Positions 52,653 through 54,413 of a DNA stretch of 64,000 bases are shown one piece after another. The DNA lies in assembly GCA_013285465.1 (NCBI GenBank), contig CP053449.1:675179-739178 (forward strand), given 5' to 3'. Made by a program: the position numbers and the translations under genes. Every line of letters starts with the position of its first letter. The first letter of the stretch is position 1. The notes beneath the pieces were generated by a model. The model searched no databases. It was given only the letters and a program-made list of their open reading frames with translations, and was not told where the DNA came from. The DNA is from Pseudomonadota bacterium (GTDB lineage: Bacteria > Pseudomonadota > Alphaproteobacteria > Micavibrionales > CSBR16-224).

Positions 52653-52934
52653 TTATTTATCACGCTGTCCGGAGCCCGCTTCGGACAGCGTCGGTATATT
52701 GCGGATCTTTCTGTTGTCATCCAGGGACTGCAATATCTCTTGATACAGATCCGTGCATCTCTCCCAGGTACCTGCACCGCCATGCTGTTCTTCATAGGTC
52801 GCGATGATTTTTAGCAATGCGTCATCCAGTACGGGAACAATCTCGCTCATTCCCTCGCGGTCGGCTTCAGCCAACGCATAAAGGATTAGGGATAAAATAT
52901 GTTCGGTAACGTTTTTCTTTATGTGGTCGCTCAT
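52653..52934 (-). CDS. Small helical protein coupled to the LuxI-type synthase
   Basis: Unrecognised. The 93-residue product (MSDHIKKNVTEHILSLILYALAEADREGMSEIVPVLDDALLKIIATYEEQHG) is predicted to be all-helical, acidic and soluble. ATG 52934 overlaps the luxI stop as ATGA and has AAGGGG 8 bases upstream, so it is translated from the same message. An in-frame GTG at 52943 is less likely. Its dependence on luxI suggests a role linked to the signal or its response, but there is no known family. No LuxR-type helix-turn-helix was seen in it. Confidence 0.75.
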   Translation of the reverse strand: MSDHIKKNVTEHILSLILYALAEADREGMSEIVPVLDDALLKIIATYEEQHGGAGTWERCTDLYQEILQSLDDNRKIRNIPTLSEAGSGQRDK

Positions 52935-53584
52935 TCCATACACCCCTTTTTCTGAATGGTTTCAATCTCGTTAAACGGCGCCGTCAGCAGAACCGGATGA
53001 GAAATGCCTGTCTTCTCCCTGACCCGCTCCAGCGCTTCTGCGGACACATGCATCTGTCCCGCGATATTTTTGCGCCCGCCGCCGTAATGTCCGGCTTTTC
53101 CCAAAAATTCGACATCCCAGCCTGCATTGATGAAAACAGACTTCCAGATCAGCGGCGGCATAATGCCGATAATGGCGGTGATGTTCCGGGCCAAGGCGAA
53201 TTCCAGATAGGCGCAGACAATTTCCGCCGTGATACGGCGGCGCAGAAATTGCGGCAATTTACGGTCAATACAAAAGCGTGACCCTTCCCAGATGCGGGCG
53301 GAGGCGGGTAAGGCGATGTTTTCGACGCTTTCCGGCCACAAATCTTTCAGCATATAGGGGCGGTCTGTCGGCATCAGGCGCGATGCGCCGCGTACATCAC
53401 CGTTTTCATCCTGCCAGACAAGATAGCTGGTGGCAGGTGTATCGTAACAGTCATATTCCATGCCGCGAAAGCTGGACAGCTCCCAATCCTGCCGGTCGAC
53501 AAAGGAGCGGTAGCGCAGACGGTATTGTGATGAGAGTGCTTTGCCGAAATACTGTGCCGTTTCGCAGTTTACACAGTTAATCAT
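52931..53584 (-). CDS. LuxI-family N-acyl-homoserine lactone synthase
   Basis: The enzyme makes an AHL signal from SAM and an acyl-carrier protein. With ATG 53584 (MINCVNCETAQ), the classical invariant residues fall exactly at their standard positions: Arg24, Phe28, Trp34, Asp45, Asp48, Arg69, Glu100 and Arg103, seen in RYRSFVDRQDW, YDCYD, GASR and EGSR. This supports the start and rejects a longer frame to 53797. GGAG lies about 11 bases upstream. 217 residues is typical. No luxR gene is in the window. A lux-box-like palindrome lies upstream at 53701. Confidence 0.93.
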   Translation of the reverse strand: MINCVNCETAQYFGKALSSQYRLRYRSFVDRQDWELSSFRGMEYDCYDTPATSYLVWQDENGDVRGASRLMPTDRPYMLKDLWPESVENIALPASARIWEGSRFCIDRKLPQFLRRRITAEIVCAYLEFALARNITAIIGIMPPLIWKSVFINAGWDVEFLGKAGHYGGGRKNIAGQMHVSAEALERVREKTGISHPVLLTAPFNEIETIQKKGCME

Positions 53585-53700
53585 TGGCGGGATGTCTCCT
53601 TCAAGAAGCGGTGTTCCTTTGAATAGGGAGGCGTGGAATGGACGAAATGAAGGGAGTCCTGCCCCCATCTGAAATGACAGCAAATTGCGGAGCTTTGTGA

Positions 53701-53720
53701 AACTGCAAAACTTTGCAGTT
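53701..53720. promoter_or_regulatory. lux-box-like palindrome between luxI and ydcF-like gene
   Basis: AACTGCAAAACTTTGCAGTT is a 20-bp inverted repeat with the CTG-N10-CAG core of LuxR-family binding sites. It is 116 bases upstream of the luxI-type start. A weak -10 candidate (TGTCAT, 53674-53679) lies 21 bases away on the luxI side, close to the spacing of class-II lux promoters, and TATATA (53742) is 21 bases away on the other side. Confidence 0.75.
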
Positions 53721-53753
53721 GCATTGGCGGGTATTTTCCTGTATATATTTATT

Positions 53754-54413
53754 ATGGATAATAAAAGGCAAAAGCAAGACGATATCAAGCACATCACGGA
53801 TTATATGCTGGTGGAAACCGCATTGCGTCCGGCGGATATTTGTTTTGTTTTTGGCGGCCAGAATGCCGATCATCTGGCTGATCACGCCGCCAAGCTGTAT
53901 CATCAGGGGCTTTTTAAACATATCATTGTCTCCGGCGGCGTTGCCACCGATGACGGGCGGCTGGAATGTGACCGTATGCGCGACCGTCTGGTGGAAAAAG
54001 GCGTGCCGGAAGATTGCATTCTGGTGGAAAATCAGGCGACCAATACCGGCGAAAATGTCACATACGGTATGCAGCTGATTGAGAAGGAGATCGGTCTGGA
54101 TAATATCGGCTCCGTCATCGGTATCGGGCAGATACACGCTTCGCGCCGCTTTATCATGACATTGGAAAAACATTGGCCGGATGTCGTGAAAATGTTCTCC
54201 ACACCCAATTATTACCCCGTCGATAAAAAGGACTGGCACAAAGATAAGAAATTCCGCAGTGATGTCATGCGCGAATTTAACAAGGTCGCCCCTTATAAGA
54301 AAAAGGGCTTTATCGCCGAAGTTGATCTGGACGAGATCGCCGAAAAAATTGAAAAACTTCCCGACACACCGCCTGCGCGTCCGCCTATTAAAAAGCGCCG
54401 TTATCGCCGCTGA
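53754..54413 (+). CDS. YdcF-family (DUF218) protein
   Basis: The 219-residue product has the DUF218 pattern: ADICFVFGGQ, LYHQGLFKHIIVSGG, ERMRDRLVEKGVPEDCILVENQATNTGENV (present as RLECDRMRDRLVEKGVPEDCILVENQ) and VIGIGQIHASRRF. YdcF binds SAM and its biological role is unknown. ATG 53754 is chosen, but a frame open upstream to 53685 would add a hydrophobic segment (FAVALAGIFLYIFI), so a membrane-anchored form is possible. The end is basic (PPARPPIKKRRYRR). It is divergent from luxI and next to the lux box. Confidence 0.8.
   Translation: MDNKRQKQDDIKHITDYMLVETALRPADICFVFGGQNADHLADHAAKLYHQGLFKHIIVSGGVATDDGRLECDRMRDRLVEKGVPEDCILVENQATNTGENVTYGMQLIEKEIGLDNIGSVIGIGQIHASRRFIMTLEKHWPDVVKMFSTPNYYPVDKKDWHKDKKFRSDVMREFNKVAPYKKKGFIAEVDLDEIAEKIEKLPDTPPARPPIKKRRYRR

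What the first reader, a model, noticed from the sequence alone, without database searches (positions are those of the whole stretch)
52653..53584. LuxI-type AHL synthase translationally coupled to an unknown 93-residue protein
Seen: a LuxI-family gene with all invariant residues at standard positions ends in ATGA, overlapping the start of a small acidic helical protein with its own ribosome-binding site. No luxR lies in the window. Known: LuxI partners are usually LuxR regulators. Inference: the small protein may be an accessory such as an antiactivator, a synthase-modulating protein or a target of the signal. This pairing was not recognised from known systems.
Basis: partly seen in the sequence, partly recalled or inferred. 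Interest (0 to 1): 0.75.

Follow-up and report, generated by a model that had tools for sequence, protein, structure and literature searches.

The report
Quorum-sensing synthase with linked antirepressor protein
Next to a gene that makes a bacterial population-density signal sits a small partner gene, probably switched on with it, that most likely works by neutralising a separate gene repressor, as the known rhizobial CinI-CinS pair does; the same arrangement turned up in about 40% of the signal-synthase loci examined, and no protein-family database consulted has a name for it.

Summary
luxI (52931-53584, minus strand) overlaps by ATGA a real 93-residue gene (52653-52934; dN/dS 0.04 against the nearest ortholog); orthologs occur only next to luxI (5 of 193 genomes). 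The interpretation needs changing. Small proteins coupled to luxI are known: CinS (R. leguminosarum) and MmaP (Methylobacterium), both binding the XRE regulator PraR. The window protein looks like a divergent member of a family, unnamed in Pfam or NCBIfam, that follows luxI in 63 of 154 luxI loci and occasionally follows solo luxR genes. Family loci carry PraR-like genes more often than other luxI loci (27/63 vs 8/91), and the C-terminal module of long members matches the PraR-like repressor tail (a SinI/SinR-like arrangement). That module is not detectable in the window protein. The genome has a PraR ortholog and an unlinked luxR 22 kb away; a conserved LuxR-type box plus -10-like motif lies upstream of luxI. 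Best reading: a quorum-induced antirepressor of PraR. Binding to PraR is inferred, not shown, and sequence homology to CinS itself was not detected. New variant of a known kind.

The parts
52653..52934 (-). Gene for the 93-residue small helical protein ('S'), proposed antirepressor; N-terminal module residues 9-50 (two-helix hairpin), third helix 56-72, disordered tail
   Evidence: orthologs; dN/dS; AlphaFold2; profile match of N-module to the luxI-linked family
52931..53584 (-). luxI-type acyl-homoserine-lactone synthase, 217 aa
   Evidence: Pfam PF00765 E 3.7e-28; conserved residues
52931..52934 (-). ATGA overlap of luxI stop and small-gene start (translational coupling)
   Evidence: sequence; cinI-cinS in R. 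leguminosarum has the same overlap
52943..52949 (-). Shine-Dalgarno-like AAAGGGG, 8 nt before the small gene's ATG
   Evidence: sequence
53701..53720 (-). LuxR-type box AACTGCAAAGTTTTGCAGTT (CTG-N10-CAG, 9 of 10 palindromic pairs), 116 bp before luxI ATG; its 18-bp core is the only such site in the genome within 2 mismatches
53674..53684 (-). -10-like motif TTTGCTGTCAT, 16 nt after the box; box + 16 nt + TYTGYTGTNAT is kept upstream of luxI in all five genomes with this small protein and found nowhere else in the fetched loci (2.5 Mb, both strands counted)

Best explanation
luxI and the small gene form one quorum-induced operon. The unlinked LuxR (22 kb away; its counterpart is the only LuxR in the close relatives) binds the box upstream of luxI when AHL has accumulated; luxI and the coupled small protein are then made together. 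The small protein acts as the intracellular output: it binds a PraR-type XRE repressor (most likely the lnt-linked PraR ortholog at C1:1804093-1804596) and takes it off its promoters, so that PraR-controlled genes respond to cell density, as with CinS-PraR and MmaP-PraR. Shown: gene overlap, conservation, QS-type promoter elements, a profile match of the N-module to the family, presence of a PraR ortholog in all genomes with this small protein. Inferred: co-transcription, induction by AHL, binding to PraR, direction of the effect.
For: Close orthologs always directly follow luxI (5 of 5). N-module matches the family of luxI-linked small proteins: profile-profile score 16.0, above all 200 column-shuffled controls (highest 15.8), full-length in register. 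The family is linked to AHL sensing: 21 of 21 hits in 142 genomes lie directly after luxI (18) or a solo luxR (3). Loci with a family member have a PraR-like XRE gene within 1.4 kb in 27 of 63 cases against 8 of 91 others (Fisher p 1.1e-6), often in the order xre-luxR-luxI-small gene. Family HMM hits away from luxI are mostly C-terminal tails of XRE proteins (15 of 22 at E<=10, background 41 of 8058); profile of long members' C-module vs XRE tails 17.8, best of 200 shuffles 10.6; the reverse search agrees. The same genome's second luxI has its own small protein (family E 1e-7) facing two XRE genes. PraR ortholog by lnt synteny in this genome and in G001, G002, G003, G006, with lnt-praR-metK in relatives of the order. 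Precedents: CinS (PMC4149787) and MmaP (PMC10790750) bind PraR.
Against: By single-protein HMM the window clade is only marginal (E 0.24-0.66 against 10,838 sequences) and the N-module profile score only just tops the shuffles. Its C-terminal part shows no similarity to XRE tails (score 3.0, shuffles mean 3.1). CinS from R. leguminosarum is not detected by the family HMM at E<=10, so homology to the experimentally proven case is not shown. No XRE gene lies beside this luxI. The structural search found no PDB relative.
Confidence: 0.58

Rival explanations
1. LuxR antiactivator: the small protein binds the AHL receptor and sets a threshold or shuts the circuit down, in the manner of TraM, QslA or QteE.
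For: Small helical proteins of this size do this elsewhere (own knowledge); family members always sit next to luxI or luxR, and 3 follow a solo luxR with no luxI beside them.
Against: No Pfam match to TraM or any other family at E<=1. The family's statistical link and its tail similarity are to PraR-like XRE proteins, not LuxR. The two experimentally studied small proteins encoded directly after luxI in alphaproteobacteria that I found act on PraR (PMC4149787, PMC10790750).
Confidence: 0.18
2. Synthase accessory: the small protein binds or stabilises LuxI, or tunes AHL chain choice; tight ATGA coupling sets the stoichiometry.
For: ATGA overlap and strict adjacency in close orthologs.
Against: Family members also occur after solo luxR genes with no luxI nearby; cinS mutation in R. 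leguminosarum left cinI expression and its AHL unchanged (as reported in PMC3356288).
Confidence: 0.1
3. Antirepressor of a different DNA-binding protein than PraR, for example another XRE regulator.
For: PraR-like XRE proteins have several paralogs in the order; R. leguminosarum CinS appears to act on a second, unknown regulator too (PMC4149787); xre-luxR-luxI operons of prophages use XRE proteins together with LuxR (PMC13345283).
Against: G001, G003 and G006 carry this small protein and only one detected PraR-family protein, the lnt-linked one.
Confidence: 0.14

Closest known systems
CinI-CinS / PraR, Rhizobium leguminosarum (PMC4149787; locus read in L117)
   Same: Small gene directly after luxI with the same ATGA overlap, a two-helix pattern of similar spacing judged by eye, PraR-type repressor present in the genome.
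   Different: CinS is 67 aa and not detectably homologous by HMM; window protein is 93 aa with a third helix; the luxR is unlinked here but adjacent to cinI.
MmaI-MmaP / PraR, Methylobacterium fujisawaense (PMC10790750)
   Same: Small ORF co-transcribed with luxI; its partner PraR was identified by metK synteny, the kind of criterion also used here (lnt, and metK in relatives).
SinI / SinR, Bacillus subtilis (PMC3163267)
   Same: Small antagonist shares the two-helix hook of the repressor's C-terminal oligomerisation domain; long members of the luxI-linked family show the same kind of relation to PraR-like XRE tails.
   Different: Not linked to AHL signalling; the relation was not found for the window protein itself.
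BCAM1871, Burkholderia cenocepacia (PMC3356288)
   Same: Gene co-transcribed downstream of luxI (cepI).
   Different: 254 aa, genus-specific, reported to have no homology to CinS.
xre-luxR-luxI operons of Roseobacter prophages (PMC13345283)
   Same: An XRE regulator gene coupled to luxR and luxI, the order seen in many family loci here.
   Different: XRE acts with or against LuxR at a lysogeny promoter; no small gene after luxI is described in the passages read.

Membership tests
LuxI acyl-homoserine-lactone synthases | Pfam Autoind_synth over its cut-off with conserved residues | tested here: met
   98.8 bits vs cut-off 24; invariant R24, E43, D45, D48, R69, E100, R103 in an alignment of relatives
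luxI-linked small-protein family (defined here, not in Pfam/NCBIfam) | directly follows luxI; two-helix N-module matching the family profile | tested here: met
   position 5 of 5 orthologs; hhalign 16.0 vs shuffles max 15.8, 0 of 200; single-sequence HMM only marginal
luxI-linked small-protein family (defined here, not in Pfam/NCBIfam) | C-module similar to PraR-like XRE tail (long members only) | tested here: not met
   score 3.0, shuffles mean 3.1; not a defining feature, since short members lack it
CinS | sequence homology to R. leguminosarum CinS | tested here: not met
   no match between family HMM and CinS at E<=10; so it is not filed as a CinS
CinS | small gene co-encoded and overlapping with luxI | tested here: met
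   ATGA overlap in both
CinS | PraR present as possible partner | tested here: met
   PraR ortholog by lnt synteny in all genomes with the window-type protein
CinS | binds PraR and removes it from DNA | not testable with these tools
   needs protein-protein and DNA-binding assays
CinS | induced by the AHL system | tested here: inconclusive
   conserved LuxR-type box and -10-like motif upstream of luxI; expression not measured
SinI-type antagonist (shares the repressor's oligomerisation hook) | sequence similarity to the C-terminal hook of the target repressor | tested here: not met
   not met for the window protein; met for long members of the family (17.8 vs shuffles max 10.6)
TraM-type LuxR antiactivators | match to a known antiactivator family | tested here: not met
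   no Pfam family at E<=1; only a citryl-CoA lyase chance match in NCBIfam

The most novel reading that the evidence does not exclude
Many alphaproteobacterial AHL circuits encode, right after luxI or luxR, a member of one unnamed family of quorum-induced antirepressors whose longer forms carry a copy or mimic of the PraR-type repressor's own C-terminal oligomerisation hook; the window protein is a diverged member that takes out PraR with a different third helix.
Probability: 0.4. Interest if true: 0.75.

Novelty: new variant of a known kind. Interest (0 to 1): 0.58.

Why it matters
CinS was described in one rhizobium, and a 2023 study of Caulobacter PraR-type regulators found no CinS-like protein by BLAST and suggested undiscovered antirepressors (PMC10688885). 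A broad luxI/luxR-linked family with a built-in link to PraR-type XRE repressors would make antirepression a common output of alphaproteobacterial quorum sensing, and would give a directly testable partner for many hypothetical proteins next to luxI. It also gives uncultured Micavibrio relatives a concrete density-sensing circuit.

Tried and rejected
Database annotation of the 93-mer: nothing in Pfam or PDB sequences, one chance hit in NCBIfam. tblastn of both small proteins, of CinS and of a Methylobacterium small protein against plasmids: no distant relatives. Foldseek against PDB with both AlphaFold2 models: only generic helical matches, E>=2, so fold comparison gave nothing. The idea that the window protein itself carries a PraR-tail mimic was tested and rejected. 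The N-module of the family is not similar to XRE tails either (score 3.7, 77 of 200 shuffles as good). A first specificity scan of the box+promoter pattern used a wrong spacer and returned nothing; it was repeated correctly. Helix composition alone was considered as the cause of the XRE-tail hits; helices of LuxR and LuxI in the same ORF set are not enriched among the hits, which speaks against it.

Full report
Observation. On the minus strand, luxI (52931-53584, 217 aa; Pfam Autoind_synth 98.8 bits) ends in ATGA, which is also the start of a 93-codon gene (52653-52934). AAAGGGG stands 8 nt before the ATG. The small gene is under strong purifying selection (5 nonsynonymous against 24 synonymous differences to the closest ortholog, dN/dS 0.042; luxI 0.086). 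Orthologs were found in 5 of 193 related genomes, counting the window's own, each time directly after luxI and nowhere else. AlphaFold2 predicts three helices, 3-26, 33-51 and 56-72, with pLDDT 86.

Organism. Micavibrio aeruginosavorus assemblies are among the more distant hits. The window's genome is a single 2.67-Mb contig.

Circuit. The window has no luxR, but G001, G002, G003 and G006 each have one detected LuxI and one LuxR, not adjacent. In G000 the corresponding LuxR lies at C1:751143-751577 (domain hit), 22 kb from luxI, in a setting shared with several relatives: an AMP-nucleosidase-like gene, luxR, a DUF2497 gene, truA (the first and last named from sequence by eye). Upstream of luxI is AACTGCAAAGTTTTGCAGTT, which fits the CTG-N10-CAG form of LuxR boxes (own knowledge); its core is the only such site in the genome within two mismatches. 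In all five genomes a box-like palindrome is followed, after exactly 16 nt, by TYTGYTGTNAT; this combination occurs nowhere else in the fetched loci (2.5 Mb, both strands counted). This is what a LuxR-activated promoter for luxI plus the small gene would look like; expression was not measured.

Second copy in the same genome. At C1:1066.4-1069.0 kb lies luxR-luxI, followed 1 nt later by a 96-residue gene, and facing it two XRE regulator genes of 80 and 143 aa. G001-G006 have only one LuxI each.

A wider family. From 154 non-redundant luxI loci an HMM was built from small downstream proteins without the window clade. Searched against 10,834 sequences (all-frame open reading frames of the loci plus four named small proteins) it returned about 75 strong hits, nearly all immediately downstream of luxI. 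63 loci carry a member, the window clade being included by position. The 96-mer of the second locus is a clear member (E 1e-7). The window clade is marginal by HMM (E 0.24-0.66), but its N-terminal module aligns with the family module over the full 37 columns with a score above all 200 column-shuffled controls (16.0 against at most 15.8). No Pfam or NCBIfam family covers any of the small proteins tested.

Link to AHL sensing. In a whole-genome search of 142 genomes of the order, 21 hits were found: 18 directly after luxI and 3 (G046, G053, G092) directly after a luxR with no luxI.

Link to PraR-type repressors. A PraR-like XRE gene lies within 1.4 kb of luxI in 27 of 63 loci with a family member and in 8 of 91 without (Fisher p 1.1e-6; loci are related by descent, so the p-value is optimistic). 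The common order is xre-luxR-luxI-small gene. The family HMM's best hits away from luxI were mostly the C-terminal tails of these XRE proteins: 15 of 22 hits at E<=10, against 41 XRE among 8058 reading frames. Profile comparison of long members' C-module with XRE tails scored 17.8; 200 shuffles reached at most 10.6. The reverse search, from XRE tails, ranked small genes behind luxI high among non-XRE frames (5 of 7 at E<=1), including 64-residue proteins that look like a tail alone (L082, L091). This resembles SinI and SinR of Bacillus, where antagonist and repressor share a two-helix hook (PMC3163267).

What this means for the window protein. It has the N-module but no detectable tail module. 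CinS (67 aa) and MmaP (59 aa), too short for both modules, still bind PraR (PMC4149787, PMC10790750). The genome has a PraR ortholog next to lnt, in the lnt-praR-metK setting that the order keeps, and in three of the genomes with this small protein it is the only PraR-type protein found. Hence the best explanation: a quorum-induced antirepressor of PraR. What PraR controls here is unknown.

Limits. No complex could be predicted. Association tests do not correct for shared ancestry. The choice of starts for the small genes in other loci was automatic.

Noticed in passing
L243 (G000:C1:1056000-1075000): The second luxR-luxI-small gene-XRE locus sits in a defence-rich, apparently mobile island: a CBASS-like set (SAVED-HNH effector, cyclase, E2), AbiEi/AbiEii, and mobilisation- and ArdC-like genes (by eye).
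   Followed up: partly
L254 2648-2896, L255 2595-2831, L256 2219-2461: Family members directly after solo luxR genes (in L255 after a tandem luxR pair) with no luxI nearby.
   Followed up: partly
L082, L091 (downstream of luxI): 64-residue proteins that look like a free-standing PraR-type tail (RIKDPVKRRNVMRLIERV), possible tail-only antirepressors.
   Followed up: no
L128, L134, L156, L166: Two family members in a row after luxI, or a second copy nearby.
   Followed up: no
L155, L157, L163: LuxI proteins 42-47% identical to the window's in Vibrio pectenicida, V. hepatarius and a Pseudoalteromonas, without the small gene: possible horizontal transfer.
   Followed up: no
window 53701-53754: The LuxR-type box ends 33 bp before the likely ATG of the divergent DUF218 gene (53754-54413), so it may affect that gene too; the neighbours (DsbA-like, DUF218) are kept in G001 and G002 but not in G003 and G006.
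   Followed up: partly
G000:C1:751099-751830 (L242 7099-7830): Unlinked luxR in a conserved setting beside a DUF2497 (PopZ-like by motif) gene and truA in several relatives.
   Followed up: partly
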